From Myxococcales bacterium (GTDB lineage: Bacteria; Myxococcota; B64-G9), in NCBI GenBank assembly GCA_012798435.1, contig JAAZNF010000098.1:1-43792 (forward strand): a stretch of DNA of 43,792 bases, given 5' to 3'. Of this stretch, positions 6,883 to 29,179 are shown one piece after another (within the stretch, counting starts at the first letter, position 1; the number at the start of each line of letters is the position of its first letter). The notes beneath the pieces are model-generated. The model was not told the origin of the DNA. It saw nothing but the letters and a program-made list of their open reading frames with translations, and made no database searches. A program made the translations under genes and the position numbers.

Positions 6883-9102
6883 TCAGAACTCCTGCTTCCA
6901 CAGTAGCAGCAGCGTGCGGGGCGCCAGCGGGTAGTCGATCCCCGAAAATCCGGGATCGGGACCGGCGCTGCCGAGGAGGTTGCGTCCGATCAGCATCAGG
7001 GTCGTGGCCCGGTAGGGCAGAAGTTGGAGGCCGGTGAAGGTCAAGGCGCCGGAGAGCAGGGTGGTCGGGGCCAGCTCGTAGGGCGTGCCGGCGGCCAGGA
7101 TGTTGCTGTCGGAGGCGCGCCGGGAGGACCGGAACGAAGCCTCCACGGAGAGCCGCAGCGGAAGCTTGGGGAGGCGCCCCATGACTCCCAGGTTGACGGT
7201 CAGGGGGGGGTAGATGCCGTTGCGCCAGCCCACCAACTCGGCCGCATAGCCTTCTTCCCCCCGGTCGCGCACCACCCACACCAGGGTCAGGTTGAGGTAG
7301 GCCCGCAGCCAATCTTTCCAGTGGAGCTCGGCCTCGGCCTCCCAGGACAGCGCGCCCAGCTCGGAGATGTTGCGGGCCACCTTGTTGGCCCCCTGTTGGG
7401 TGAACTCGGCCTGGTCCATGACCAGGCTGTAGCCCACGTCGGTGGACAGGTGCAGGACCTCGGAGGGGGACCACAGCACCTGCCCCTCCAGGGTGTGCAC
7501 GTACTGTGGCTCGAGGTCGGGGTTGCCGATGATGTCGCCGGAGCGCAGCGGGACGCCGTACAGCAGCTGCGGCGAGGGTGCCTTGAAGGCCGAGGCGTAC
7601 ACCAGCTTCAGGTGCAGGTTTGAAAGCGCCTTGACCACCAGCGCCGCCCGGCCGCTGGGTTGGCCGCCGTAGATGTTGTGATGGTCGAAGCGAAAGCCGC
7701 CGGTGAGCCCGATGCGCCCGCCCTCGGACTGCCACAACGCCTGCAGGTAGGCGCCCGGATTGAAGAGCGCCTTGTGCCCCTGGCGCACCGAGGTGGACTC
7801 GCGGATGTCCCCGGCCTTCAGCCCCCCCACCGACAGCTGCAACACGTGCAGCATCGAGGGCAGCGCCTCGTCGTCGTAGAAAAGGTCGGTGCCGGCCATG
7901 AGCTGGAGGGAGGGGATCGGCTGGTAGCGGGCACCCAACGACACCTCGCATCCCGAGAAGCCAAACTCCCGCCGCACCCAGTAGGTGTCGGAGCCCACGT
8001 CGATCCGATCGGAGGGGCGCGGCCCGCCGGTGAAGTAGGTGGCGGAGGCGTTCAGCTCGAGCTGCTCGTTCAGGGCGAAGGTCGCGCCCAGATCCACGTA
8101 CCCCATGACCAGGGCGATCTGGTTCTTGCGGGAGTGGCCCTGGGCGTCGATGCCGTTCGCCAGTTGCTGCCAGTCGGCGAACTCGGCCACCCGTTCGATG
8201 GTGGACATGCCGGCGGCCAGCGTAAGCCGGCTTTTCTCGCCCAGGTGGTAGATGAGCTTCAAGAGCCCGGTGCCGGAGAACATCCGCTGGCCGCTGGAGG
8301 TGAGCGTGGCCTGGCTATAGTCCGGGATCTGCGGGGCAGGGGAGGAGCCCGGGAGCGAAAGGCCCGAGCGATCTTCGGAGTGGACGCGCGCCCCCAGCAG
8401 CACCTCCACCGCGCCCAGCCGGGTGCTCAGGCTGGCGTCCATGTCGCCGCCCAGGTTCTTGCCCGTCAAGCTGACCCCGGTGGTCAGATCGGCGCCGCGC
8501 TGATCCTTGCCGGCGCGGGTGATGACGTTGATCACCCCCAGGAAGGCGTCCGCGCCGTAGAGCGCCGAGGCGGGGCCGCGCACGATCTCGATGCTCTCGA
8601 CCGCCGTCAAGGGGATGAGCTCGGGCCCCAGCCACACGCCCGAGGTGGAGCGAAAGGCCACCGATCGGCCGTCGATCATCACCTTGAGGATGCCGCTCTC
8701 GGCCCGCAGGCCACCGATGATGCCTCGGACCGCGACGTTCGGCAGGACGTGGTCATCCTGGACGAAGAACCCGGCCAGGTGGGAGAGGACCTCGGCCACC
8801 GAACGGTAGCCCCAGCGCTCGATCTGCTCGCGGGTGACCACGGTGATGACCGCCGGCGCTTCCTCGACCTTCTGCATGGACTTGGTGGCGGTGGTCACCT
8901 CGACCTGTTCCTGGAGCATGTCCAGCTCGTCATCGAGCCCTTGGGTGTCGTCATCCTCCTCGGCGGGCGGCGCCTCGGGCGCCTCTCCCTCGCCGGGCGG
9001 GACCTCCGCAGAGGCTCCTTCGTCCTGCCCGAGCGCCGGGCCGGCGACGAGCAACACGGACAAGAAGACGAAGGACGACGCTGTTGGAAAGTTTCCCGGC
9101 AT
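6883..9102 (-). CDS. TonB-dependent outer-membrane receptor
   Basis: A 739-aa beta-barrel receptor. It has a signal peptide ending near GPALG, an acidic Pro/Glu-rich segment (residues 25-60), a plug domain with VITVVTREQIERWGYRSVAE and GPASALYGADAFLGVINVITR (split by normal family spacing), then a long barrel ending in phenylalanine (LLLLWKQEF). Receptors of this type import large or scarce ligands using TonB energy; the ligand is unknown. The start is uncertain: ATG 9102 is used, while an in-frame GTG at 9120 would add KIALN with a positive charge. Neither has a clear ribosome binding site. A longer open frame upstream is not real. It heads a unit with two solute-binding lipoproteins. Confidence 0.92.
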   Translation of the reverse strand: MPGNFPTASSFVFLSVLLVAGPALGQDEGASAEVPPGEGEAPEAPPAEEDDDTQGLDDELDMLQEQVEVTTATKSMQKVEEAPAVITVVTREQIERWGYRSVAEVLSHLAGFFVQDDHVLPNVAVRGIIGGLRAESGILKVMIDGRSVAFRSTSGVWLGPELIPLTAVESIEIVRGPASALYGADAFLGVINVITRAGKDQRGADLTTGVSLTGKNLGGDMDASLSTRLGAVEVLLGARVHSEDRSGLSLPGSSPAPQIPDYSQATLTSSGQRMFSGTGLLKLIYHLGEKSRLTLAAGMSTIERVAEFADWQQLANGIDAQGHSRKNQIALVMGYVDLGATFALNEQLELNASATYFTGGPRPSDRIDVGSDTYWVRREFGFSGCEVSLGARYQPIPSLQLMAGTDLFYDDEALPSMLHVLQLSVGGLKAGDIRESTSVRQGHKALFNPGAYLQALWQSEGGRIGLTGGFRFDHHNIYGGQPSGRAALVVKALSNLHLKLVYASAFKAPSPQLLYGVPLRSGDIIGNPDLEPQYVHTLEGQVLWSPSEVLHLSTDVGYSLVMDQAEFTQQGANKVARNISELGALSWEAEAELHWKDWLRAYLNLTLVWVVRDRGEEGYAAELVGWRNGIYPPLTVNLGVMGRLPKLPLRLSVEASFRSSRRASDSNILAAGTPYELAPTTLLSGALTFTGLQLLPYRATTLMLIGRNLLGSAGPDPGFSGIDYPLAPRTLLLLWKQEF

Positions 9103-9134
9103 GTTCAGTGCGATCTTCACGATAGAATTGGGGA

Positions 9135-11570: not shown

Positions 11571-12518
11571 TCAGCGACCTCTCCCGGGCCGTTGGATCTG
11601 GGCGGAAATGCCCGAGATGTCCTCGTCCAGCTCGACGATCATCCCCTGCGGTAACACTCGGCACCCGGAGCACTCGGAGGCCCGGAACTCGACCCGGTAG
11701 CGGCCGCCGGGGAGCTTGTCGAAGACGAACCTGCCGTCCTCGCCGCTCGCCGCCTCTCGCTCGGCGGGCCCGGACACCCGGACAAGAGTCTTCTCCCCCT
11801 TCTTCTGGCCTTTCACCTGGCCACTCAGACGGTAGACCGGGCGTTCCACGAGCGGCTTGCCGGATTCATCGACCGGGGCCTCGAGCGGGACGGCCGAACC
11901 CTCGCTGGGCTCGGCCAGAAAACGCATCCCCAGGATGGGCTCGCGCTCGATCTCGAGCTCCATCTCGACCGGGACGAAGCGGTAGCGATCGTCGCGGGGG
12001 ATCAGGCGGCAGGCGCCGGGCTCGCGGGGTTGGAGGCTGAAGGCGCCGCCTTTCGCGGACTTCCCTTCGACCGGGATGCGGCAGGCGAGTTCGAGCAGCA
12101 CCACCTGGCCCTTCTGGAGACCCTCCACCCGTCCCTTCACCGCCCCCGGGTTTCCCGCGGCGCGTCGCGAGATGGCGTGGAAGTTGACCGCCTGGACTCT
12201 CGGCTCGCGCACCACGACCGTCCTCGAGGAGGGGGAGAACTGGTAGTTGGCGTGCTCCGGGCGCACCAGGTATTTTCCGGCGGAAAGCCCGCAGGCCTCC
12301 CACTGGCCTCCGGGCTGGCTCTGGACCCGTAGGCTGACCCCGCCCTCGATGTTCAAAAAGGCCGCGTCCTGGCCGGAAAGTCCGGTCACCCAGCCCCGCA
12401 CGCAGGCGGCCTCGGCCCACGGGGCGGCGAGCAGTATCCCGATGATGAGCGCCGCGCCAAGGTGCGTATGGCTTGCCGCCTGCCGGCGCCGTCGGCCCGG
12501 ATCCCGGAGGTTTTCCAT
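11571..12518 (-). CDS. Secreted protein with carboxypeptidase-regulatory-like (Ig-fold) domains
   Basis: A 315-aa protein with a basic N-terminus (PGRRRRQ) and signal peptide ending around PWAEAAC. The mature protein has repeated beta-sandwich signatures: GGQWEACGLSAGKYLVRPEH and, near the C-terminus, GEDGRFVFDKLPGGRYRVEF, the second being a classic carboxypeptidase-regulatory-like motif. A RVEGLQKGQVVLLELACRI region may be a middle copy. Such domains usually serve in adhesion or cell-surface structure rather than catalysis. The ATG at 12518 has AAGG 8 bases upstream. It is divergent from the nuo-like cluster; a TTGACA on the minus strand (12548-12553) may be its -35 box, but no good -10 was seen. 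Confidence 0.75.
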   Translation of the reverse strand: MENLRDPGRRRRQAASHTHLGAALIIGILLAAPWAEAACVRGWVTGLSGQDAAFLNIEGGVSLRVQSQPGGQWEACGLSAGKYLVRPEHANYQFSPSSRTVVVREPRVQAVNFHAISRRAAGNPGAVKGRVEGLQKGQVVLLELACRIPVEGKSAKGGAFSLQPREPGACRLIPRDDRYRFVPVEMELEIEREPILGMRFLAEPSEGSAVPLEAPVDESGKPLVERPVYRLSGQVKGQKKGEKTLVRVSGPAEREAASGEDGRFVFDKLPGGRYRVEFRASECSGCRVLPQGMIVELDEDISGISAQIQRPGRGR

Positions 12519-12620: not shown

Positions 12621-13097
12621 ATGGACGTCATCCTGTTCTGGATCCTGGGTGTGATCACCTTGGGCGCGGCCGGGTTCGCCATGCTGCATCCCCGGCCGGC
12701 CCCCGCCGCGACCGCCTTGTCGCTCACCATGGCGGGCAACGGCGGCATCTGCCTTCTGCTGGGCCAGTACCTCTTGGGAATGGAGGTCCTGCTGGTGCTG
12801 GCCGCCGGGGCGCTCTTCTTGCGCGCCTTCATGCGCGGCCGGGAGATCCTCCACATCCACACCGGGGGCAAGGCCCGCTGGAGCCTGGCGCGCGTCTCGG
12901 GCGTGGCCGCGGCGGCGGTCTTCTTGTGGCTTCTCCTCCCCCTCCTCTCCGACGTGGAGCGCCCGCGGCTGGCCGAGGGTGCGGAGGCCATCTCCACCAC
13001 GGCCTGGCTGGCGCTGCTTTCGCTGCTGACCGTGGCCATCACCGGCGGGTTCGTGGTCCGCGCGCGCCGCGCCCAGAACGGAGGCTCGGGCTCGTGA
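12621..13097 (+). CDS. nuoJ: NuoJ-like (complex I chain 6) membrane subunit
   Basis: A 158-aa protein with five hydrophobic segments. The first three align well with E. coli NuoJ (comparison from memory): FWILGVITLGAAGFAMLHPR, then a GQYLLGMEVLLVLAAGALFL segment matching the NuoJ TM3 region. In complex I this subunit couples the quinone site to the antiporter chain through a pi-bulge helix and a conserved tyrosine (Tyr59 in E. coli); here that position is leucine, while the nearby glutamate (E55) is kept. A GGAGG lies 4 bases before the ATG. The stop overlaps the GTG start of the nuoK-like gene. No NuoA-I subunits are in the window. Confidence 0.8.
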   Translation: MDVILFWILGVITLGAAGFAMLHPRPAPAATALSLTMAGNGGICLLLGQYLLGMEVLLVLAAGALFLRAFMRGREILHIHTGGKARWSLARVSGVAAAAVFLWLLLPLLSDVERPRLAEGAEAISTTAWLALLSLLTVAITGGFVVRARRAQNGGSGS

Positions 13098-13396
13098 TCC
13101 CTCTCGAACACGTGCTGTGGCTGGCCATGCTCCAGGTCAGCCTCGGGCTGGCCGGCCTGCTGCTGCGGCGCTCGGGGCCGGTGGTCGTGCTGGCGGGGAT
13201 CTTGATGTTGAACGGCGTGCTCCTGGCCGTCGCCGGGCTGGCGGCCAACCGGGAGGGCGCGCCGCTCCAGGCGCCGGGCGTCGTCATCCTGGCGCACATG
13301 GTACTGCTGGTGCTCTCGGGCGCCGCGGTGGCGTACGCCTTCGAGCGATTTCGCCGCCCCCTCAACGTGGACGAGCACGACAGGATGAAACATTGA
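13094..13396 (+). CDS. nuoK: NuoK-like membrane subunit lacking both key glutamates
   Basis: A 100-aa protein, the same length as E. coli NuoK, with three TM helices. It starts IPLEHVLWLAML and ends PLNVDEHDRMKH, matching the NuoK ends IPLQH and NLNID...M. An ungapped alignment with E. coli NuoK (recalled) puts isoleucine at position 36 and leucine at 72, where NuoK has the proton-path glutamates E36 and E72. N40, G76, R85, L90, N91, D93 and M98 are kept, so the homology is sound but the proton path is not. The GTG start overlaps the nuoJ stop (GTGA), and the stop overlaps the TTG start of nuoL. Confidence 0.8.
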   Translation: MIPLEHVLWLAMLQVSLGLAGLLLRRSGPVVVLAGILMLNGVLLAVAGLAANREGAPLQAPGVVILAHMVLLVLSGAAVAYAFERFRRPLNVDEHDRMKH

Positions 13397-15078
13397 CGCT
13401 GTCTTCCCTGGCAAACGCCGCCGTGCTCCTCACCTGGGCGGCGCCCGTGGCGGCCTCGCTGCTGCTCTCTCTCCTGGGAGGCCGGATCCCGCGCCGGGGG
13501 CTCACCCTCCTCTCGCTTTCTGGTAGCGCCCTCCCCCTGTTGTGCGGCGGGTTCCTGCTGGGCCTGCGCTGGTTGGATCCGGGCTCGGCGCCCCCGGCTC
13601 CGGATGGGACCGCCCTGTGGGCGCTGCTGCTTTCGAGTTTTTTGGCCCTGGGCGCCCTGTGGCAGGCGCAGCGCTCGGTGGCCGCTTTCAGCGGGCGGCA
13701 CCGCTTCTACGCGCTGATGATGCTCCTGCTGGCCGCGGCCGGCTTCCTGTTCACGCGAGCGGCCCTGGACCTGGCCTTTCTGGTAGGCTGGGAGGGGCTG
13801 TCGCTGTCGGGCGGGTTCCTGGCCGGCTTCTGGGCTATCGAGGAGCGGGGAGGGCGGACCGGGGTGCACTGGTTGCTACTGGGCCGCGTCTCCGGGCTTT
13901 TGCTTCTGCTTTCGCTGCTCACCGCCGCGGGCCCTCACCCCGAGTGGTCCACCTCGTTGCTCCTGGCCGCGGCGCTGGTTCGCGCCGGCGTGGTGCCGTT
14001 CCACGGCACCGTGCCCGAGCTGGGACGAAGCCGGTCCACCGCCGCGCTCCTGGTTCAGACCCTGGCCTCGTGGGTGCCCGCGGTGTTCTTGCTGGACCGG
14101 GTGCAGGATTCGTTGGAGCGCTTCCCCGTCTTGCTCGACTGGCTGCTGTGGCTTTCGCTGGCCAGCGTGGCGTTCTCCCTGGTCGCCGCCATGCAACCGC
14201 AGGCGCCACAAAAGATCGTCGGCTGGCTGACCATGAGCGCGGGCAGCCTGGCCCTGCTGGGGTTCGCCGCGGGCGACCCGGTGGCGGCCCTGACGTTGTG
14301 CGCCGGCGGCGCGCTGCTCCTGGCCGGGCGCTTCTTGCTGAACGGCCGGCCGGAAGCGGAGACGGGGCCGGATGAGATCGCGGCCGGGCCGATCTTCCGC
14401 CTGCGCGCCGTGTCGCTGGCCTCCGCGGTCGTCGCGATGGCGCCTCCGGCGCTGTGGTTCGCGGGCTGCGCGCGGCTGCTCGCGGCCGCGGCGGGGGATG
14501 AGCGGGGAGCGTGGATCACCGCGGCCGTCTTCGCCGTCCAGTTCGGCATGGGCGCCGCGCTGCGCCGTCTCCACGAAGCGCTGCCCGCCGAGGAAGGGGC
14601 GCGCTGCTGGCCCTGGCCGGCCCTGCTGTTCTCTGTGGGCCACCTGATCGTCGGCGCGGCTGGCATCCTGCTGTTCGGTGAGGCGTTCTGGGGCGGGGCG
14701 ACGGGGATCCGCCTGGGGCTCGGCGCCGTGCTGGCGGCCGGGGCCGGCTGGCTGCTGGCCGGTTCTTTCGCGCGGCTCAAGGTCGCGCCCCGCTTCATCG
14801 GCGCGCGGCGCCTCATGGAGCTCCTGGCCGACACGGGTCTCGGGCTGGGCCGGCTGGTGATCCTGCTCCCGGTGGGGCTGGCCAAGGCCCTGGGAGTGGT
14901 GCTGTGGCGGCTCCTGGGCGACATCTTGATCGACGGCCTGGGGACCGGGTTGCCGGTGCGCACCGTCGAGGGCACGGGGCTGGTCCTGCGACACCTGCAC
15001 GACGGGCGGATCCGGCGCACCTTGCTCATCGCCGCCTGGACTGCGCTGGCCCTGCTGTGGGCCTGGACGCGGAGCTGA
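13393..15078 (+). CDS. nuoL: NuoL-like antiporter-type subunit, proton-relay residues changed
   Basis: A 561-aa, highly hydrophobic protein (E. coli NuoL is about 610). The TM5 motif LVGWEGLSLSGGFLAGFW keeps the conserved glutamate. The TM7-8 segment reads AALVRAGVVPFHG and ALLVQTLAS, where active NuoL has lysine in GKSAQ and histidine in ALIHA; here these are Arg and Gln. The TM12 lysine is also absent (APPALWFAGCARLL). A C-terminal amphipathic stretch with LRHLHDGRIRRTLL matches the NuoL tail. The TTG start at 13393 overlaps the nuoK stop and is favoured by that coupling; no ATG lies nearby. It may form part of a non-pumping membrane arm. Confidence 0.78.
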   Translation: MTLSSLANAAVLLTWAAPVAASLLLSLLGGRIPRRGLTLLSLSGSALPLLCGGFLLGLRWLDPGSAPPAPDGTALWALLLSSFLALGALWQAQRSVAAFSGRHRFYALMMLLLAAAGFLFTRAALDLAFLVGWEGLSLSGGFLAGFWAIEERGGRTGVHWLLLGRVSGLLLLLSLLTAAGPHPEWSTSLLLAAALVRAGVVPFHGTVPELGRSRSTAALLVQTLASWVPAVFLLDRVQDSLERFPVLLDWLLWLSLASVAFSLVAAMQPQAPQKIVGWLTMSAGSLALLGFAAGDPVAALTLCAGGALLLAGRFLLNGRPEAETGPDEIAAGPIFRLRAVSLASAVVAMAPPALWFAGCARLLAAAAGDERGAWITAAVFAVQFGMGAALRRLHEALPAEEGARCWPWPALLFSVGHLIVGAAGILLFGEAFWGGATGIRLGLGAVLAAGAGWLLAGSFARLKVAPRFIGARRLMELLADTGLGLGRLVILLPVGLAKALGVVLWRLLGDILIDGLGTGLPVRTVEGTGLVLRHLHDGRIRRTLLIAAWTALALLWAWTRS

Positions 15079-15080
15079 AC

Positions 15081-16559
15081 ATGGACGGCTCGCTCGCGCG
15101 GATCCTGCTGGTCTGCCTGCCGTCGTTGCCGGCGCTCGGCGCGCTGGCGGTGGGAGTGTGCCCGCCGCGCGCCACCCGGCTGGCCCGGTCCCTGGGCTGG
15201 GCCTTCTCGCTGGGGGCGCTGGGCGCGTGGATCGGCCTGTGGTGGCTTTCGAAGAATGGCTCGCTGCCGGTGTCGCTCGAGTTCCCCTGGGTGCCCGAGC
15301 TGGGGATCGGTTTCCACCTCGGGTTGGACGCGGTCGGGTTCTGGTTCAGCGGCCTCATCGTGATGGTGGGTGGCGCGGCCATGATCGGGACGCTGCCGGG
15401 ACTCCCGGATCTCAACCGTTCTCACCTGGTGTGCCTGCTCCTCGCCGAGTGCGGCATGCTGGGCGCGGTGGCCTCCTGGGACCTCATCCTGTTCATCGCC
15501 TTCTGGGAGGTCACCCTGGTGCCCTTCTTCTTGTTGATGGGGCGCGGGCCGGAGCTGCGGGGCGTGGCGGCGGCCACCCGGTTTTTCGTGACCTCCATCG
15601 CTTCCAGCGTGGTGCTGTGGGTCGGGGTCCTGCTGCTGGTACGCGCCGCCGGCGAGCCGCGCACCTTCGATCTCGGAGAGCTTTCGCGACGATTCGAAGC
15701 GGCACCCGCCGGAGGCCTGGCCTGGTTTTTCGTGCCGGCGTTCGTCATGCGCCTGGCGGTCTTCCCACTGCACACCTGGTTCCCCGTGGCCCAGTCGGAT
15801 AGCCCCGTGGCGGCCTCGGTCATGTTGGCCGGTGGGGTGCTGCCGCTGGGTGGCTTCGGCGTGTACCACCTGCTGCATCGTATCTTCGGCGCACAACTGG
15901 GTGGCACGGCCCATGCGCTCGCCTGGTTGGGGCTCGGGACGACGCTGCTGGGAGGGCTGGTGGCCCTGGTGCAGCGCGATCTCAAACGTCTGCTGGCCTG
16001 CCTGTGCCTCGGACAGACGGGGCTGGCGCTGCTGGGGCTGTCGCTCGGAAGCCCGGCGGCGGTGTGGGGAGGTCTCGTGCTGCTGGCCTCGGCCGGTCTC
16101 TCCGGCGCGGCGGCATTCCTGTTCGCGGGGGTGGTTTGCCAGGCCCGCGACAGCCAGCGAGTCGTCGACATCAGCGGCTTGTGGCGGCGGCAGCCGCTGT
16201 TCTCGGGCCTGTTCTTGCCCGCGGTGGCTTCCCTGGGGGCGTTGCCGGGCACGGTGGGTTTCTCGGGGGCCTGGCCCGTCCTGCGCGAGTTGCAGGGCGA
16301 AGGGCTGATGCTCGTGCTCGCCGCGTTCGCGCTGCTCGTGCTGGGCGGGGCGGGGTTGTGGACCAGCCGGCGCTTGAGCGGAGGGGTGTTCCAGGCGGAC
16401 CTGTGGAATAGCTCCCGTTGGCCGCGGCGGCGGCAGGTGGTGGTGCTGCTGCTGCTCGCCGGTGTCATCCTGGCCGTGGGCTTGTGGACGGCGCTGGACC
16501 AGGCGGCGCCGGACCCGGCCGCGGCGGCCGCGTCCATGGGTCTGGGGAGGTCCCCGTGA
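15081..16559 (+). CDS. nuoM: NuoM-like antiporter-type subunit, proton-relay residues changed
   Basis: A 492-aa protein with about 14 TM helices, normal length for NuoM. FIAFWEVTLVPFFLLMGRG matches the NuoM TM5 glutamate motif. The TM7-8 region FVMRLAVFPLHTWFPVAQSD, then SVMLAGGVLPLGGFGVY, is clearly NuoM, but the two central lysines are replaced (Arg in FVMRLA, Leu in VLPLG). The segment VALVQRDLKRLLACLCLGQTG carries Gln where His is usual, and the TM12 glutamate is Ala in GFSGAWPVL. The ATG at 15081 is 2 bases after the nuoL stop. The stop overlaps the nuoN GTG start. Confidence 0.82.
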   Translation: MDGSLARILLVCLPSLPALGALAVGVCPPRATRLARSLGWAFSLGALGAWIGLWWLSKNGSLPVSLEFPWVPELGIGFHLGLDAVGFWFSGLIVMVGGAAMIGTLPGLPDLNRSHLVCLLLAECGMLGAVASWDLILFIAFWEVTLVPFFLLMGRGPELRGVAAATRFFVTSIASSVVLWVGVLLLVRAAGEPRTFDLGELSRRFEAAPAGGLAWFFVPAFVMRLAVFPLHTWFPVAQSDSPVAASVMLAGGVLPLGGFGVYHLLHRIFGAQLGGTAHALAWLGLGTTLLGGLVALVQRDLKRLLACLCLGQTGLALLGLSLGSPAAVWGGLVLLASAGLSGAAAFLFAGVVCQARDSQRVVDISGLWRRQPLFSGLFLPAVASLGALPGTVGFSGAWPVLRELQGEGLMLVLAAFALLVLGGAGLWTSRRLSGGVFQADLWNSSRWPRRRQVVVLLLLAGVILAVGLWTALDQAAPDPAAAAASMGLGRSP

Positions 16560-18025
16560 GCCCGATCCTGAGCCTGCCGCCGGCCACCATGGCCCTGTTC
16601 TGGTTGCCGACCCTGGCGTGTGCTGTCGTGGAGGTCGCGCTCCCGGCCCAGAGAGCGTTGCGCGCTCTGCTCTCGCTGGCCGGGCCCGTGGCCGTCCTCG
16701 GGGTCGTGGGGTTCCTGTGGCCCGAGGTGGCGGGGCAGAGCCCTCCCCTGGCCACCTTCCTCGGAGACGGTTTTGGCCGTTTCGCGCTGGGGACCATCTG
16801 GGTGCTGGCGTTCTTCGCGATCGCTCTGCGGCGAGGCGAGGAACCACGGTCCGCCGACGGCGGGGACACGTTGCTGCTCTTGTCGGCCGCGGGCGGGTCG
16901 CTGCTCGTCCTCTCCGCGGACCTGTTCGCCACCCTCTCCGGCTTCGCCCTGACCCTGGTCCCGGTGTGGGGGCTGGCTTCCGTCTCCGGCAGGATCGAAG
17001 GACGCGAGGCGGCGCTCAAAGGGCTTTTGGCCGGCGTCCTGTCCCTGGTGCTCTTCGCCCTGGGCTCGGCCTTGATCCTTGCCGCCACGGGGCACTCCAC
17101 CCTGGCCGGGATCGGTGGCTTTTTGCGCGATCTTCCTCCCGGTGAGGCCCTACCGCCCTTGCTGGCGCCGGGGGTGGCGCTGCTGTTGGGTGGCCTGGGC
17201 TTGTTCGTGGCCGCGGTACCGCTGCACATGTGGTTTTCAGACCTGGCGGAGGGGTTGCCGGCCTCGGCCTCGCTGTGGCTCACGGGCGGGGTGCTGGTGG
17301 CCGGGCTGGCGGTCTCGGCGCGGATCTTGCTCACGGCGCTCCTGCCGCTCGCGCAACACCCCCAGATCGGTTGGGTGGAGCTACTGCGGGGCGTCGGCCT
17401 GGTGGCCCTGCTGGTCGCCAACGCGGTGGCCCTGGTGCAGTCCCGCCTGCAGCGAATGGCGGGCTACCTGGCGGCCGGGCAGACCGGGTTCTTGCTGCTC
17501 GGGATCGCCGCCGCGGGAGAGGTGCGCGGCGAGGGCGAGCACATCGTGGGTGGCATCCTGGTCTTCTTGCTGGTCCATGCCCTCACCTGGGCGGGCCTCT
17601 ACGCGGGGTTCTCCCGGCTCACGGGTCCCGAGCCACCGCGGGTGAGCCACCTGGAAGGCCTGGCGCGGCAATGTCCCTGGCTGGCGGCGGTCATGGGCCT
17701 GGCGCTGTTGTGTCTCTCGGGAATGCCGCTCACGGCCGGCTTCTTCTCCCGGCTCGTCTTGCTCGAGGCCATGGTGAGCGCGGGCTGGACGGGGACGGCC
17801 GTGCTGGCGGCCCTGTCCCTGGGCCTGGTGCTGGTCATGAGCCTGGGGCTGGTGGCGGCCATGGTCATGCGGCCGCCGACTTCGGCATCGCCGCGCCCGA
17901 CGGGTGTCTGGCCCGCGCTGGCCGCCGCCGTCACCGCCGTGGCCATCCTGGCGATCGGGTTCTTGCCTGGCGGAGTCCTGCGCGTCGCGCTGCAGGCCGC
18001 CCGGAGCCTGGCTCTGGGGTTCTGA
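16556..18025 (+). CDS. nuoN: NuoN-like antiporter-type subunit, proton-relay residues changed
   Basis: A 489-aa polytopic membrane protein, usual length for NuoN. AAVPLHMWFSDLAEGLPASA corresponds to the NuoN TM7-8 AVPFHMW..D..EGAP motif, but the conserved lysine before it is replaced by a hydrophobic residue. The TM5 glutamate is Ala (LSGFALTLVPVWGLAS). The late motif SGMPLTAGFFSRL has Arg for the conserved Lys. The GTG at 16556 overlaps the nuoM stop. It is the last gene of the module and converges with the PilZ gene, leaving a 10-base gap without a visible terminator. Confidence 0.78.
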   Translation: MSPILSLPPATMALFWLPTLACAVVEVALPAQRALRALLSLAGPVAVLGVVGFLWPEVAGQSPPLATFLGDGFGRFALGTIWVLAFFAIALRRGEEPRSADGGDTLLLLSAAGGSLLVLSADLFATLSGFALTLVPVWGLASVSGRIEGREAALKGLLAGVLSLVLFALGSALILAATGHSTLAGIGGFLRDLPPGEALPPLLAPGVALLLGGLGLFVAAVPLHMWFSDLAEGLPASASLWLTGGVLVAGLAVSARILLTALLPLAQHPQIGWVELLRGVGLVALLVANAVALVQSRLQRMAGYLAAGQTGFLLLGIAAAGEVRGEGEHIVGGILVFLLVHALTWAGLYAGFSRLTGPEPPRVSHLEGLARQCPWLAAVMGLALLCLSGMPLTAGFFSRLVLLEAMVSAGWTGTAVLAALSLGLVLVMSLGLVAAMVMRPPTSASPRPTGVWPALAAAVTAVAILAIGFLPGGVLRVALQAARSLALGF

Positions 18026-18035
18026 TTCTGGTGGC

Positions 18036-18419
18036 CTATTCCGATCGCCGCGGCAAGGGCGGGGGTCCGACGGGGGCCGGTGCACCATAATGAGTGGAGA
18101 CGAAGCGGCGGATGGCTTCATGGGCGGCGGCGTCCATACGGACGAAGCGGACGCCCATCCAGTCCGAGGACACGCCCCCAGAGCTCCGTTGATGATAACT
18201 CACCTCGGCGGAGGCGCTGATGGCGGGCTGGTTCTCCGACAGAGAAAACTCCACCTCCACCGCGCTGCCGACCGGGGGCAGCTTGGGCAGGTAGATACCC
18301 ATGCCCCCCTCGCTGAGATCCCGCCCCACCCCGTTGAACCGGCCGCGGATGGTGTCCACCTTGACGCGGAAGGCCACCGGTATTCGCAGAGTGCGCCGTT
18401 TCTCGCTTCCCAGGCTCAT
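18036..18419 (-). CDS. PilZ-domain (c-di-GMP-binding) protein
   Basis: A 127-aa single-domain protein. It has both halves of the c-di-GMP-binding signature: KRRTLRIP (the RxxxR half, residues 7-14) and DLSEGGMGIYLP (the DxSxxG half, near residue 39). A second beta part ends WMGVRFVRMD, followed by a helix with HEAIRRFV and a proline-rich tail. It would act as a c-di-GMP effector in the cytoplasm, target unknown. The ATG (18419) overlaps the selB stop in an ATGA, with GAGGAG upstream inside selB, so it is translated with selB. No functional link between Sec insertion and c-di-GMP is established. Confidence 0.88.
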   Translation of the reverse strand: MSLGSEKRRTLRIPVAFRVKVDTIRGRFNGVGRDLSEGGMGIYLPKLPPVGSAVEVEFSLSENQPAISASAEVSYHQRSSGGVSSDWMGVRFVRMDAAAHEAIRRFVSTHYGAPAPVGPPPLPRRSE

Positions 18420-20374
18420 GATTCTTCTCCTCGTCCCGCGCCGGCCGTCCGCGGCACCCGTCGGTCGCCGACTCGCAGGGTCACCTTTTCCCGATCGAAG
18501 TACTCCGCCAGCGGAATGGCGAACTTCCGGCTGGTTCCGACCAGCCCCTTCCACTCCTGCGTGGTGATGGCGCCCCGCTGTTCGAGGTGTTGCCGCAGGC
18601 GCGCGCGCAGGTCCTCGATGGCCGGCGCCGAGAAGAACAGCTCGGCCGATACCCGGATCAACCGCCGGGAACGGACCAGGTGCGAGAGCAGCTCGGTCAC
18701 TTCCTTCACGCCGCAGGACAGGCGCTGCGCCGCCTCCTCCGGCCGCGGTGGGGCCAGACCGGCCTGGTCGAAGAGCGCGGCCAGCTCCTCGCTCTGACTC
18801 GCCCGCTGGCCCGAGAGCCGTACCCGGTGCGTCGAGAGTCGCACCGCGTCCGCCTCGGCCGCCAGCGCGCCGCGGCGGCAGAAGTCGTCGAGCAGCGCGC
18901 GGAAGACGCGGGGCGAAAGCTCGGGTTGGAGCCGCTGGCGTAGCGCCTCGGTCGGCATGCCGGGAAGCAGCGGGTTCTCCTGGTGGAAACGCTCCAGGGT
19001 GCGGTGCGCCCGCTCCAGCGCCTGCGCGCGCGCGCCCGCCCCGATGGCCCGTTGGCGCTCCGGATCGGTCCACAGCAGCCCGCCCTCGCCGGCGATCTGC
19101 TCCAGCGCGGCCTGGATCTCGGAGGGCCCCGCGCCGGTCTCCAGGGCGAGTTCGGCGGCGCTGGCCCCGGCCAACTCCCGCCCGTCGAGCAGGATCGAGA
19201 CCCGCTCGGCCAGGGTGCCGCGGTCGAGCCGGCGCAGGCGCTCCAGCCGGACCTGGGCCTCGCGCGTTCGCCGCCGGGGTGGATGGGGGTCCAGCACGCG
19301 TCCCCCGCCGATGGTGGTCCCCCGGCCCGGGATCGGGGCGAACCCCCGCAGGATGAAACGCTGGCCGGCGAAGAGAGCCAGCGGCTCCTGGGCGTGGATG
19401 CGGGCGAAGGCGGCTTCGCCCGGCGAGAGGCGCTCGGCACCCCACAGGCGCACCCGGACCTCGCTCTTGGCGGTACCCGCGTAGAGGATGGCCGAGAAGC
19501 GCGCCGGGCGCGCCTCGGCGCCGGCGACCAGTTCGAGGCGCGATTCGAAGTCGCGGCTGGGCTGGAAGCCGGGTTGGCAGATCACCTGACCTCGCGAGAG
19601 CTCTTCCTGGGCGACGCCGGACAGGTTGACGGCGACACGCTGTCCGGCAAAGGCCTCGGGCTGCTCGCGACCGTGGCTCTGCAGGGCGCGGATCTTCACC
19701 TTGCGCAGCTTCCCGCCGGGATCGGGAACGATGTCCACCATGCCGTCCGAGCGCAGCTGGCCCGTCAGCAGGGTGCCGGTGACCACCGTGCCGAAACCCT
19801 GCGCCGAGAAGATGCGATCGATGGGCAAGAAGGGCGGGGCCGAAAAATTCCGCGGGGGGACGTCGCGGCCCGCTTCCAGCAGGAGCCGCTTGAGCTCGGC
19901 GAGCCCCTGGCCGGTGCGGCTGGAGACTCGCACCTTCGGGCTGGCCTCGAGGAACGTGCCGGCCAGCTCGCGTCCCAGGTCGGCGAGCACCTCTTCCTGC
20001 CAGGCCGGATCGGGGGTCAGGTCGATCTTGGTGAGCGCCACCACGCCGCGGCGGATGCCCAACAGGTGGCAGATGTCCACGTGCTCGCGCGTCTGGGGCA
20101 TGACCCCCTCGTCCGCCGCTACCACCAGCAGGCACAGATCGATGCCGCCCGTTCCAGCCACCATGTTCTTGACGAAGCGCTCGTGGCCCGGGACGTCGAC
20201 GATGGCCGCGTGCAGATCGGGCGCGAGTGCAAGTTCGGCGAAGCCCAGGTCGATGGTGATGCCGCGCTTTTTCTCCTCCGGCAAGCGATCCGGATCCACC
20301 CCCGTCAGCGCGCGAACCAGGGCCGACTTCCCGTGATCGATGTGGCCGGCCGTGCCGATGACGATCGAGCGCAT
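18416..20374 (-). CDS. selB: Selenocysteine-specific elongation factor SelB
   Basis: A 652-aa GTPase that delivers selenocysteyl-tRNA to UGA codons followed by a SECIS hairpin. The EF-Tu-like G domain shows GHIDHGKS (G1), KKRGITIDLGFA (switch region), DVPGHERFVKNM (G3) and TKID (G4). Beta-barrel domains 2-3 follow (FSAQGFGTVVTGTLL is a SelB/EF-Tu domain-2 motif), then the family's C-terminal winged helices, ending in EWKGLVGTSRKFAIPLAEYF and RVGDRR, the final wing that reads the SECIS. The ATG at 20374 has GGGAGG 3 bases before it; an in-frame upstream ATG at 20410 would add 12 residues. selA, selC and selD are not in the window. Confidence 0.96.
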   Translation of the reverse strand: MRSIVIGTAGHIDHGKSALVRALTGVDPDRLPEEKKRGITIDLGFAELALAPDLHAAIVDVPGHERFVKNMVAGTGGIDLCLLVVAADEGVMPQTREHVDICHLLGIRRGVVALTKIDLTPDPAWQEEVLADLGRELAGTFLEASPKVRVSSRTGQGLAELKRLLLEAGRDVPPRNFSAPPFLPIDRIFSAQGFGTVVTGTLLTGQLRSDGMVDIVPDPGGKLRKVKIRALQSHGREQPEAFAGQRVAVNLSGVAQEELSRGQVICQPGFQPSRDFESRLELVAGAEARPARFSAILYAGTAKSEVRVRLWGAERLSPGEAAFARIHAQEPLALFAGQRFILRGFAPIPGRGTTIGGGRVLDPHPPRRRTREAQVRLERLRRLDRGTLAERVSILLDGRELAGASAAELALETGAGPSEIQAALEQIAGEGGLLWTDPERQRAIGAGARAQALERAHRTLERFHQENPLLPGMPTEALRQRLQPELSPRVFRALLDDFCRRGALAAEADAVRLSTHRVRLSGQRASQSEELAALFDQAGLAPPRPEEAAQRLSCGVKEVTELLSHLVRSRRLIRVSAELFFSAPAIEDLRARLRQHLEQRGAITTQEWKGLVGTSRKFAIPLAEYFDREKVTLRVGDRRVPRTAGAGRGEES

Positions 20375-20469
20375 ATCCTCCCGATAGCAGAGAGGGTGCC
20401 CGGTGATCAAGAGCCGAGAGCATCGATCGCCAAAATGCCTAACCGGCGAAAAAAACAGGCGATATTTTC

Positions 20470-26738: not shown

Positions 26739-27302
26739 ATGGAGGCGAAAGGCGCACCTTGCATGGACGAAGACGCCGAACGCATGCTGCGCTTTGCATC
26801 CGGAGACGAGGCCGCCTTCGACGAGCTGGTGCGGCGGTATGGCCAGAAGTTGCTCGCCTTCGCCGATCGGTTCTTTCACAACCGGGCCCGGAGCGAGGAG
26901 ACGGTGCAGGAGGTGTTCTTGCGCGTGTTCGAGGCGCGCAAACGCTATCAACCCAGGGCGCGCTTCTCCACCTGGATCTACACCATCGCCACCCGGCTGT
27001 GCCTGAACGAGCTGCGCCGACGGCGGCCGGAGGCGCAGGCCGGCGGGAGCGAGGCCGAGATGTTTGGCTCCGCCTCGCCGGCGCAGGAGCTCGAGGCGGC
27101 GCGGCTCGCCCGGTCGGTGCAGCGTGCGGTGGACGAGCTTCCGGAGAACCAGCGCGCCGCGCTCCTGCTCTCCCGCTTCGAGGACAAAAGCTACGCCGAG
27201 ATCGCGAAGATCCTGGACGTGAGCGAAGGCGCGGTGAAGTCCTTGCTGTTTCGGGCCACGGACGAGCTGCGCCGCGTATTGTCGCAGGAGGAAGGCTCAT
27301 GA
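26739..27302 (+). CDS. ECF-family RNA polymerase sigma factor
   Basis: A 187-aa sigma-70 family factor. Region 2 spans about residues 20-90 (FDELVRRYGQKLLAFADRFF, ETVQEVFLRVFEARKRYQPR, FSTWIYTIATRLCLNELRRR), and region 4 about 120-180 (VDELPENQRAALLLSRFEDK, SYAEIAKILDVSEGAVKSLLF). This is the ECF layout without region 3. An alternative ATG at 26763 would remove 8 residues. The stop overlaps the anti-sigma start (ATGA). Sigma, anti-sigma, acidic secreted protein, FecR and DUF3106 form one plus-strand run with tiny gaps, so the sigma factor probably responds to an envelope signal. Confidence 0.93.
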   Translation: MEAKGAPCMDEDAERMLRFASGDEAAFDELVRRYGQKLLAFADRFFHNRARSEETVQEVFLRVFEARKRYQPRARFSTWIYTIATRLCLNELRRRRPEAQAGGSEAEMFGSASPAQELEAARLARSVQRAVDELPENQRAALLLSRFEDKSYAEIAKILDVSEGAVKSLLFRATDELRRVLSQEEGS

Positions 27303-27757
27303 GCTGCGAAGAGATCAGGCCGGATCTGGTGGCCTACCTGGACGGGGAGCTCTCGAACGAGCGGCGGCAGGCGCTCGAGGGCCACCTTTCGGGGTGCGAA
27401 GGCTGCGCGCGGCGGCTCGGCGAGTTTCGCCGTGCCCGCGAGGCCCTGGCGGCGCAGCCGGCCCTGGAGGCCGTGCCGGGGTATCTGCAACGAGTCATGG
27501 CCCGCTCGCGCGAGGCGTCCCGCGGCGGATTTTCCGGCCGCTTCCTGCGCTGGCTGGCGCCGGCGGCGGCGCTGGCCGCGGGGGCGCTCATCGTGGCCCT
27601 GTGGCCAAGCCGGCCGGCCCCGGAAGTCTCCGTGGAGCCGGCGGACGAGCTCGAGATCGCCTCCGAGTTCGAGCTCTACGCCGACTACGAGCTCATCGCC
27701 GAGCTCGATGTGCTTTCGGATCTCGAGGCCATCGAGAGCCTGGAAGACGAGGGTTGA
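27299..27757 (+). CDS. Zinc-finger anti-sigma factor (zf-HC2) with acidic periplasmic tail
   Basis: A 152-aa protein. Residues 1-36 match zf-HC2/ZAS: C3, H29, C33, C36 with YLDGEL and HLSGCEGC. A TM helix lies at about 85-104 (WLAPAAALAAGALIVALWP). The 45-residue C-terminal tail beyond it is strikingly acidic (DELEIASEFELYADYELIAE, then LDVLSDLEAIESLEDE). The cytoplasmic zinc finger should bind the ECF sigma; the tail should be periplasmic. The ATG overlaps the sigma stop. The next gene encodes a secreted protein with a similar acidic helix pattern. Confidence 0.9.
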   Translation: MSCEEIRPDLVAYLDGELSNERRQALEGHLSGCEGCARRLGEFRRAREALAAQPALEAVPGYLQRVMARSREASRGGFSGRFLRWLAPAAALAAGALIVALWPSRPAPEVSVEPADELEIASEFELYADYELIAELDVLSDLEAIESLEDEG

Positions 27758-27758
27758 C

Positions 27759-28019
27759 ATGCGCCGCTCTCTCGCCGCCATCGCCTTCGCCGGTGCGCTG
27801 GGGGGCGCCGGCCCGCTGGCCGGGGTGGATCGGCCCGACGCGGGGACGCCGCCTGCTTCGCCACCGGCGCCGGCGCAGCAGGCGACCGCCCTCGCCGAGT
27901 GGGAGCGTGAGGTGCTGGCGCACATCGAGCTCCTGATCGATCTCGAGGTCGTCGAGGACCTCGATCTTCTCACCCAGCTCGACGAGATTTCGATTCTTTC
28001 GGAAGGAGAGAGCCGATGA
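27759..28019 (+). CDS. Small secreted acidic protein with anti-sigma-tail-like helix
   Basis: An 86-aa protein with a signal peptide (RRSLAAIAFAGALGGAGPLAG), a short Pro/Ala spacer, and a C-terminal acidic leucine-patterned helix (EREVLAHIELLIDLEVVED, then LDLLTQLDEI). This pattern follows that of the anti-sigma tail encoded just upstream (E-L-x-x-[DE]-L-[DE]-V and D-L-[DE]). It begins 1 base after the anti-sigma stop, and its stop overlaps the FecR start (ATGA). I know no characterised family. A role in sensing with the anti-sigma factor is an inference from position and pattern. Confidence 0.8.
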   Translation: MRRSLAAIAFAGALGGAGPLAGVDRPDAGTPPASPPAPAQQATALAEWEREVLAHIELLIDLEVVEDLDLLTQLDEISILSEGESR

Positions 28020-29179
28020 AGACCTTGGCTTTTGCATTTTCTTTGCTGTGCGCTGGGTATGCGCTGGCCGGCGAGCCGGACGGCGCCGCGGACGGGGTGT
28101 TGCTGGAGGTTGCGGGCGAGGTGTGGCGCTTGCCGCTGGACGGCGAGGCGTGGGCGCCGGCCGCGGCCGGCACGGCGCTGGCCGCGGGGGATTCCATCCG
28201 CACCGGCAAGAAGTCGCGCGCCCGCGTGCGGATCGGTACGAACATCGACCTTCGGCTGGGCCCGAACGCCGAGCTGCAGATCGAGGAGCCTGAGAGCGGC
28301 GAGCAGCCGGTGCCGATGGTGTCGCTCCTGCTCGGCTGGCTCCAGGCGACGGTGAGCCACGCGCCGGGCGAGAAGGTCCCTTTCGAGGTGCACACCGGCA
28401 ACGCGGTGGCGGGTGTGCGGGGCACGGAGTTCGTGGTGGCCGCCGGTCTCGATGGCCTGACGCGGGCCGAGGTGCTCTCGGGAGAAGTGGCCTTCGCCGC
28501 CGAAGAGACGGAGGTGGCGGTGGGCGCAGGCTATGCTTCCGAGGCCACCGAGGGCGCGGCTCCGCTGGCCCCCGGCGCCGCGAAAACGTCGGACTGGGAA
28601 GCCTGGCAGGAGGAGCGCGAGGGCCGGGCGCGAGAGCGCGCCGAGGAGATGGCGGCGAGCTTCACCAGCCGTGTCGACGAGCTGGCCGGGAGGCTGGACG
28701 GGCTGCGCAAGGCGGAATCTCGCCAGCGCGAGAAGATCCGCTGGTTGATCGCGAAGCTGTCGCAGGCCCGTCGGGCCAACCAGCCCAGGGTGGCCGAGAA
28801 GGCGCGGGAGCGGCTGCTCGACCTCATGGCCCAGCAGCTGCGGCTGCACAAGGAGCTGCGCCGGGCGGCGGTGCGGCTGTCCGGGTTCATCCGACGGCTG
28901 GTGCGGCTCGAGGAAGCCATCGCCGGCGCCGGCGGGGAGAAGGCCGCCGAGGCGCTGGCCGCGCACCCCAGGCTGGCGAGCGCGCTGCGCTGGTTGCGGA
29001 CGAAGGACGCCACCGGGAAGGACCCCGACCGCTTGCGCGCTCTGGAGCGGGAGCGGCGCGAGACGTTGCGGCAGATGGCGGCGTTCCGGGCGATGTTCCG
29101 GGAGGCCGGCTTCACCCGCGCCGATCTACGCGAGGCGCGCGAGCGGCTGCGGCGGTTGCGCGGCGACCAGCGGCCATGA
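28016..29179 (+). CDS. Secreted FecR-domain protein with coiled-coil C-terminus
   Basis: A 387-aa protein with a signal peptide (TLAFAFSLLCAGYALAG). Residues about 25-170 form a FecR domain: ALAAGDSIRTGKKSRARVRI, LRLGPNAELQI and the hallmark VHTGNAVAGVRGTEFVV, plus VLSGEVAFA. The remaining 200 residues are very basic and acidic helix, predicted coiled coil (WEAWQEEREGRARERAEEMA; LRALERERRETLRQMAAFRA). Unlike classical FecR it has no TM segment and no N-terminal anti-sigma part, so it is a periplasmic FecR-like protein in an ECF operon. The ATG overlaps the previous stop. Confidence 0.88.
   Translation: MKTLAFAFSLLCAGYALAGEPDGAADGVLLEVAGEVWRLPLDGEAWAPAAAGTALAAGDSIRTGKKSRARVRIGTNIDLRLGPNAELQIEEPESGEQPVPMVSLLLGWLQATVSHAPGEKVPFEVHTGNAVAGVRGTEFVVAAGLDGLTRAEVLSGEVAFAAEETEVAVGAGYASEATEGAAPLAPGAAKTSDWEAWQEEREGRARERAEEMAASFTSRVDELAGRLDGLRKAESRQREKIRWLIAKLSQARRANQPRVAEKARERLLDLMAQQLRLHKELRRAAVRLSGFIRRLVRLEEAIAGAGGEKAAEALAAHPRLASALRWLRTKDATGKDPDRLRALERERRETLRQMAAFRAMFREAGFTRADLREARERLRRLRGDQRP

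What the first reader, a model, noticed from the sequence alone, without database searches (positions are those of the whole stretch)
12621..18025. nuoJKLMN-like membrane arm stripped of its proton-relay residues
Five overlapping genes keep the size and order of complex I NuoJ-K-L-M-N, with recognisable motifs, yet almost every residue known to carry protons is changed: NuoK E36 to Ile and E72 to Leu (ungapped 100-aa alignment), NuoJ Tyr59 to Leu, NuoL TM7 Lys to Arg, TM8 His to Gln and TM12 Lys lost, NuoM both central Lys lost and TM12 Glu to Ala, NuoN TM5 Glu to Ala, TM7 Lys lost and late Lys to Arg. NuoL and NuoM keep only the TM5 Glu. All five open frames are intact and use coupled starts, so the set is maintained, not decaying. 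It may be a non-pumping or re-purposed membrane module, with no peripheral-arm gene nearby. The E. coli comparison is from memory.
Basis: partly seen in the sequence, partly recalled or inferred. Interest (0 to 1): 0.75.

Follow-up and report, generated by a model that had tools for sequence, protein, structure and literature searches.

The report
Complex I arm without proton path
A family of uncultured Myxococcota keeps, beside its ordinary respiratory complex I, a spare five-gene copy of the membrane half of that enzyme in which nearly every amino acid that moves protons has been replaced, so it is probably a membrane complex that no longer pumps protons and has been reused for something else.

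Summary
Window 12621-18025 encodes NuoJ-K-L-M-N homologues with no other complex I gene nearby. The set lies in the same order beside selB in all nine held genomes of this Myxococcota family (nine genera); the NuoL form occurs in none of the other 186 genomes searched in the phylum. Two canonical nuo operons lie elsewhere in this genome. Canonical copies in eight of these genomes keep NuoK E36/E72 and NuoJ Y59 (8/8); the variants never do (0/9). NuoL K342/K399/H334, NuoM K265/E407/H322/H348 and NuoN E133/K217/K247/H305 are lost in 9/9. NuoL K229, NuoM K234 and NuoN K395 are Arg in 9/9. Folds, NuoL's C-terminal helix and the TM5 Glu of L and M are retained. Corrections: NuoM K234 is Arg, not lost; NuoL H254 is kept in 5 of 9; NuoM starts at ATG 15081. 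No third NuoH, NuoA or NuoD exists in the genome. Best reading: a maintained, repurposed, non-pumping membrane module; partner and task unknown. A peripheral-arm-less nuoJKLMN is published for Gilliamella (read there as a remnant), so the gene set is not unique; the conserved dismantling of the proton path appears new.

The parts
12621..13097 (+). NuoJ-like protein (158 aa), GGAGG just upstream of the ATG. E. coli Tyr59 position is Leu; family-specific basic loop after TM3 (GxPGRxRxN in relatives, degenerate here); invariant Glu at residue 55.
   Evidence: (Oxidored_q3 E=0.001, below cut-off)
13094..13396 (+). NuoK-like protein (100 aa), GTG start. E36 is Ile (codon 13199-13201), E72 is Leu (codon 13307-13309); conserved family-specific tail VDEHDRMKH.
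   Evidence: (Oxidored_q2 above cut-off)
13393..15078 (+). NuoL-like protein (561 aa), TTG start overlapping the NuoK stop. Keeps TM5 Glu (residue 134), K229 to Arg (residue 197), K342 and K399 lost, C-terminal region matching the lateral helix kept.
   Evidence: (Pfam only 12.8 bits)
15081..16559 (+). NuoM-like protein (492 aa from ATG 15081). Keeps TM5 Glu (codon 15507-15509), K234 to Arg (codon 15750-15752), K265 to Pro (codon 15843-15845), E407 to Ala (codon 16269-16271).
   Evidence: (PF00361 E=6e-43)
16556..18025 (+). NuoN-like protein (489 aa), GTG start overlapping the NuoM stop. E133 to Ala, K217 to Phe, K247 to Leu, H305 to Gln, K395 to Arg (codon 17750-17752); E154 and K158 kept.
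   Evidence: (PF00361 E=3e-28)
18036..18377 (-). PilZ-domain protein, convergent neighbour; homologues beside the operon in three relatives. Synteny marker, not shown to be a partner.
18416..20410 (-). SelB (selenocysteine elongation factor), convergent neighbour in all eight genomes whose contig reaches that far. Synteny marker.

Best explanation
The five genes are an old, vertically kept paralogue of the complex I membrane arm (J-K-L-M-N) whose proton path has been dismantled while fold and assembly features were kept. The products most likely still form a row J-K-N-M-L braced by the NuoL C-terminal helix. They cannot relay protons the known way: NuoK has lost both carboxylates and NuoJ its Tyr59; the central Lys and bridging His are gone from NuoL, NuoM and NuoN; the distal residue is gone from NuoL and NuoM; NuoN keeps only Arg there. 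What remains charged inside NuoL and NuoM is the TM5 Glu with an Arg at the TM7 Lys site, read here as a locked structural ion pair. Without NuoH, NuoA or a spare peripheral arm, the complex is probably a stand-alone, non-pumping membrane module used for another task, perhaps with a new cytoplasmic partner at the J/K end, where new conserved motifs lie. Shown: gene set, conservation, residue states, folds of L and N, lack of spare H/A/D. Inferred: assembly, loss of pumping, membrane side of the motifs, new partner. The task itself is unknown.
For: Same five-gene order in 9/9 family genomes, nine genera; NuoL variant E 1e-196 to 1e-261 in those nine, next best in 195 Myxococcota genomes 2e-32. 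Residue contrast: canonical 36/36 (M), 50/50 at NuoL K305/H334/H338/K342/K399, 29/29 (N K217/K247), variants 0/9 at the central and distal sites; NuoK E36/E72 and NuoJ Y59 8/8 in C117-type copies of eight of the genomes, 0/9 in variants. No replacement charged residues at the central or distal sites. Variants form one clade, support 100/100, on a very long stem among canonical NuoM. Purifying selection: NG86 dN/dS about 0.07-0.34 in the less diverged pairs with finite dS. Conservation moved: NuoL residues 301-375 fall from about 0.9 identity in canonical to 0.1-0.5 in variants, while the C-terminal 551-600 stretch is about equal. Fold: NuoN model TM 0.87 to NuoN chains, NuoL model best matches NuoL chains, TM about 0.75. 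Only two NuoH, NuoA and NuoD loci in the genome. Gained conserved features: NuoK tail DEHDR, NuoJ basic loop, NuoJ Glu55. Published E. coli NuoN K247A and K395A pump at about 35% and 20% of wild type; E133A is tolerated, thought to be because NuoK E72 compensates (PMC13073174); here E72 is gone as well.
Against: No biochemistry. Arg at TM7 keeps charge, and E. coli NuoN K217R still pumps at 88% of wild type, so residual or altered conduction is not excluded. NuoM keeps the D310/K312 motif, and NuoN E154/K158 are kept. Invariant NuoJ Glu55 could be a new titratable site. No partner gene was identified, so a new task is argued only from conservation. Assembly of the five proteins together was not modelled. 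dN/dS of the more distant pairs, the window's among them, is unreliable: dS is saturated or biased by G+C, and the window's NuoJ pairs give about 1.
Confidence: 0.6

Rival explanations
1. Exchangeable or extra membrane arm: the JKLMN proteins join the H/A/B/C/D/I core of the C117-type 11-subunit complex, in place of its own JKLMN or at its end, giving a non-pumping (uncoupled or regulated) form of complex I.
For: A C117-type complex occurs alongside the variant in eight of nine genomes by NuoM/NuoN sequence, and the ninth (G002, 70% complete) has a NuoH/NuoD locus on one contig. Streptomyces nuo2, which lacks NuoCDEFG and NuoL, has been proposed to cooperate with the canonical operon (PMC9239103).
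Against: NuoJ, which contacts NuoH and NuoA, is among the most diverged subunits (37% identity between genomes against 59% for the C117 type) and falls below the Pfam cut-off. NuoK tail and NuoJ loop differ from canonical. The genes are not near any nuo operon.
Confidence: 0.17
2. Altered ion transporter: a stand-alone Mrp-like complex that moves Na+, K+ or another solute through other residues, with the Glu-Arg pairs and NuoJ Glu55 as gating points.
For: NuoL, M/N, K and J correspond to MrpA-N, MrpD, MrpC and MrpA-C (PMC7419157), and Mrp stands alone without NuoH. NuoJ Glu55 is invariant in variants.
Against: MrpG is absent in this genome and in seven relatives. Pfam and NCBIfam match NuoM and NuoN best. 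MrpC histidines and MrpA-C E706 have no counterpart at NuoK 36/72 or NuoJ 59. The conserved polar axis is missing in the second half of each antiporter-like subunit.
Confidence: 0.12
3. Remnant of a third complex I being lost by genome reduction, as proposed for nuoJKLMN in Gilliamella.
For: Same five genes are kept in Orbaceae and were read as remnants (PMC11325843). Variants diverge 1.3-1.8 times as much as C117-type copies in the same genomes.
Against: All five frames are intact in nine genera; dN/dS is well below 1 in comparable pairs; particular replacements (three Lys to Arg, NuoM K265 to Pro, NuoM H322 and NuoN H305 to Gln) are fixed in 9/9; new motifs are conserved; genomes are 3.4-7.7 Mb, not reduced.
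Confidence: 0.06

Closest known systems
Respiratory complex I membrane arm (NuoJKLMN of NDH-1)
   Same: Gene order J-K-L-M-N, subunit sizes, NuoL and NuoN fold by predicted structure, TM5 Glu of NuoL and NuoM, NuoL C-terminal region
   Different: No NuoA/H/B/C/D/I with it; NuoK glutamates, NuoJ Tyr59, central Lys, bridging His and most distal residues replaced in all nine genomes; new NuoK tail and NuoJ loop motifs
Orphan nuoJKLMN of Gilliamella and other Orbaceae (PMC11325843)
   Same: Exactly the same five nuo genes kept without the other nine in a whole lineage (95 Gilliamella genomes)
   Different: Different phylum; there read as remnants of a lost complex, here beside two complete complexes I. 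State of the proton residues in Orbaceae could not be examined with these tools.
Mrp cation/proton antiporter
   Same: Stand-alone complex without NuoH; subunits homologous to NuoL, N/M, K and J
   Different: MrpG not found in this genome; L, M and N are separate complex I-type subunits; Mrp key residues not found
Streptomyces nuo2 cluster (PMC9239103)
   Same: Incomplete second nuo set beside a canonical one, function unclear
   Different: nuo2 lacks NuoCDEFG and NuoL; this set lacks everything except JKLMN

Membership tests
Complex I (NDH-1) membrane arm, by descent and fold | Homology of L, M, N, K, J and colinear gene order | tested here: met
   Order conserved in 9/9; Pfam PF00361 and PF00420 above cut-off for M, N and K; J and L weak by sequence, L confirmed by fold
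Complex I (NDH-1) membrane arm, by function | NuoK E36/E72 and NuoJ Y59 (E-channel) | tested here: not met
   0/9 against 8/8 in C117-type copies of eight of the genomes
Complex I (NDH-1) membrane arm, by function | Ion-pair Lys/Glu, central Lys, bridging His and distal Lys/Glu in L, M and N | tested here: not met
   Only TM5 Glu in L and M kept; TM7 Lys is Arg in L and M; central Lys 0/9; bridging His 0/9; distal residue lost in L and M, Arg in N
Complete complex I | NuoH, NuoA and peripheral subunits | tested here: not met
   None in the operon; genome has only the two H, A and D loci of its canonical operons
Complex I membrane arm | Proton pumping | not testable with these tools
   Needs purified complex or vesicles
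Mrp antiporter | MrpG subunit (PF03334) | tested here: not met
   Absent in this genome; found only in G007, at other loci
Mrp antiporter | MrpC histidines and MrpA-C Glu at the NuoK/NuoJ key positions | tested here: not met
   NuoK 36/72 and NuoJ 59 positions hold hydrophobic or small residues
DabAB inorganic carbon system | DabA (PF10070) partner | tested here: not met
   No DabA in any of the nine genomes
Orbaceae-type orphan nuoJKLMN | Shared descent or shared residue losses | not tested
   Gilliamella sequences could not be fetched with the remaining tools; known here only from PMC11325843

The most novel reading that the evidence does not exclude
Peripheral-arm-less JKLMN is a recurrent kind of membrane complex (this Myxococcota family and, independently, Orbaceae) in which the complex I membrane arm has become a non-pumping scaffold or regulator with a new cytoplasmic partner at its J/K end: a pseudo-enzyme form of complex I.
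Probability: 0.25. Interest if true: 0.82.

Novelty: new variant of a known kind. Interest (0 to 1): 0.62.

Why it matters
Complex I coupling is still debated, and the roles of single Lys, Glu and His residues are known mostly from one-at-a-time mutants. Here is a natural membrane arm in which nearly all of them are gone at once while fold and assembly features persist under selection. It is a natural negative control for proton-path models, shows which residues are needed for structure rather than pumping (TM5 Glu with TM7 Arg, the NuoL helix), and, if a partner is found, would be a new use of the complex I scaffold. Automatic annotation is likely to call these genes NADH-quinone oxidoreductase subunits and so overstate the pumping capacity of these genomes.

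Tried and rejected
Pseudogene decay: rejected by nine intact copies and low dN/dS in comparable pairs. Sequencing or assembly artefact: rejected by nine independent genomes. Key residues at shifted positions: scanned, none found at central or distal sites. Missing peripheral arm elsewhere in the genome: only the two canonical sets. DabAB and Mrp membership: not met. Partner from neighbours: only SelB, PilZ, PilZ-response-regulator, radical SAM and outer-membrane-like genes; none is an obvious partner. Origin of the variant clade: the tree nests it among canonical NuoM, but the stem is very long and the exact place unresolved. Rfam search of the window: nothing. The genome-contig scan needs close matches and gave only four family members, so absence outside Myxococcota is not shown. 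One alignment call was wasted on a dummy sequence. Promoter scan uninformative.

Full report
What is there. The window is contig C27 of a 5.05 Mb genome in 129 contigs; the window itself is 69% G+C. Related named records are MAGs labelled Deltaproteobacteria or Myxococcota. On the + strand lie five genes: J 12621-13097, K 13094-13396, L 13393-15078, M 15081-16559, N 16556-18025. K, L and N start inside the stop of the gene before; M starts at an ATG two bases after the L stop. The upstream gene (11571-12518) is divergent and carries a carboxypeptidase-regulatory-like domain; downstream, convergent, are a PilZ protein and SelB. No other gene examined in the window resembles a respiratory subunit.

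Identity. Pfam puts M and N clearly, and K just, above the cut-off of complex I families; J and L are weak. NCBIfam ranks NuoM, NuoN and NuoK models first for those three, but below their curated cut-offs. AlphaFold models from nine-sequence alignments have NuoL-type chains (TM about 0.75) and NuoN chains (TM 0.87, rmsd about 2.8 A) as best PDB hits.

Not unique to this genome. All eight other held genomes of the family, each a different genus, carry the same five genes in the same order, with selB next to them wherever the contig reaches. A NuoL-variant profile run on 195 Myxococcota genomes gives E 1e-196 to 1e-261 in those nine and then drops to 2e-32, ordinary NuoL. The genome also has two complete canonical operons, C69 (NADH type) and C117 (11 subunits, no EFG). 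NuoH, NuoA and NuoD occur only in those two.

Residues. E. coli numbering; the architecture of ion pair, central Lys, bridging His and distal residue is from PMC9271201. Canonical copies were compared with nine variants. NuoL: E144 kept 9/9; D178 lost 9/9; K229 Arg 9/9; H254 kept 5/9; K305, H334, H338, K342 and K399 lost 9/9. NuoM: E144 kept; K234 Arg 9/9; K265 Pro 9/9; H322 Gln 9/9; H348 and E407 lost 9/9. NuoN: E133, K217 and K247 hydrophobic or small 9/9; H305 Gln 9/9; K395 Arg 9/9; E154, K158 and H224 kept. NuoK E36/E72 and NuoJ Y59 lost 9/9, against 8/8 kept in the C117-type copies of eight of these genomes. Conserved charged residues in hydrophobic stretches of the variants were listed; none sits at the central or distal sites except the NuoN Arg already named.

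Selection. The variants are one clade, support 100/100, on a stem of about 4 changes per column among canonical NuoM. In the same eight genomes they diverge 1.26 (N) to 1.82 (L) times as much as the C117-type copies. NG86 dN/dS in the less diverged pairs with finite dS is about 0.07-0.34; more distant pairs are saturated and not used. In NuoL the canonical conservation peak (residues 301-375) collapses, while the C-terminal stretch that forms the lateral helix stays about as conserved as in the canonical copy. Three Lys-to-Arg and three other replacements are fixed 9/9, and the variants have gained conserved features: NuoK tail DEHDR, a basic NuoJ loop, and an invariant NuoJ Glu55. This looks like re-use, not decay.

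How it may work. Inference: the proteins form a J-K-N-M-L row held by the NuoL helix; the Glu-Arg pairs in L and M are structural; no proton path remains of the known kind. Published E. coli NuoN mutants support this in part: K247A and K395A are severely impaired, and E133A is tolerated, which the authors attribute to NuoK E72 (PMC13073174); here all of these change together. Against: NuoN K217R pumps nearly normally there, so Arg does not by itself exclude function. What the module does instead is not known. New motifs in J and K, on the side where NuoH and the peripheral arm would normally sit (membrane side from general knowledge of complex I topology), suggest a new partner; no candidate was found.

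What is known. Stand-alone nuoJKLMN has been reported in all 95 Gilliamella genomes and read as a remnant of genome reduction (PMC11325843); Streptomyces nuo2 is another partial set (PMC9239103). Neither passage retrieved mentions loss of the proton residues. Nine paper searches found no description of this Myxococcota operon; the library holds only open-licence papers, so this is weak evidence. Filed as a new variant of a known kind: member of the complex I membrane-arm family by descent and fold, not by its functional residues.

Noticed in passing
G000:C117 (L048:1108-18536): An 11-subunit complex I without NuoEFG, followed by a metallo-beta-lactamase-fold protein, a multihaem cytochrome c and a porin-like protein: possible link to extracellular electron transfer.
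   Followed up: partly
G000:C69 (L047:13376-14782): The NuoN of the otherwise canonical NADH-type operon has Ser instead of the TM5 Glu133; the NuoB, NuoC and NuoD parts appear fused in one 801-aa frame.
   Followed up: no
L039:13169-13960 and homologues in L041, L042, L044, L046: A PilZ plus response-regulator protein lies divergently upstream of the operon in five relatives, and a separate PilZ protein lies downstream in the window and three relatives.
   Followed up: partly
window 18416-20410: SelB, suggesting selenoprotein synthesis; adjacent to the operon across the family.
   Followed up: no
window 26763-29179: ECF sigma factor, zinc-finger anti-sigma-like protein and FecR-domain protein in a row.
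   Followed up: no
window 33066-35090 and 6883-9120: Two TonB-dependent receptor genes.
   Followed up: no
G007:C22 and G007:C73: One relative (G007) has two Mrp/MBH-like clusters with NuoH-, NuoD- and MrpG-like genes, not seen in the window's genome.
   Followed up: no
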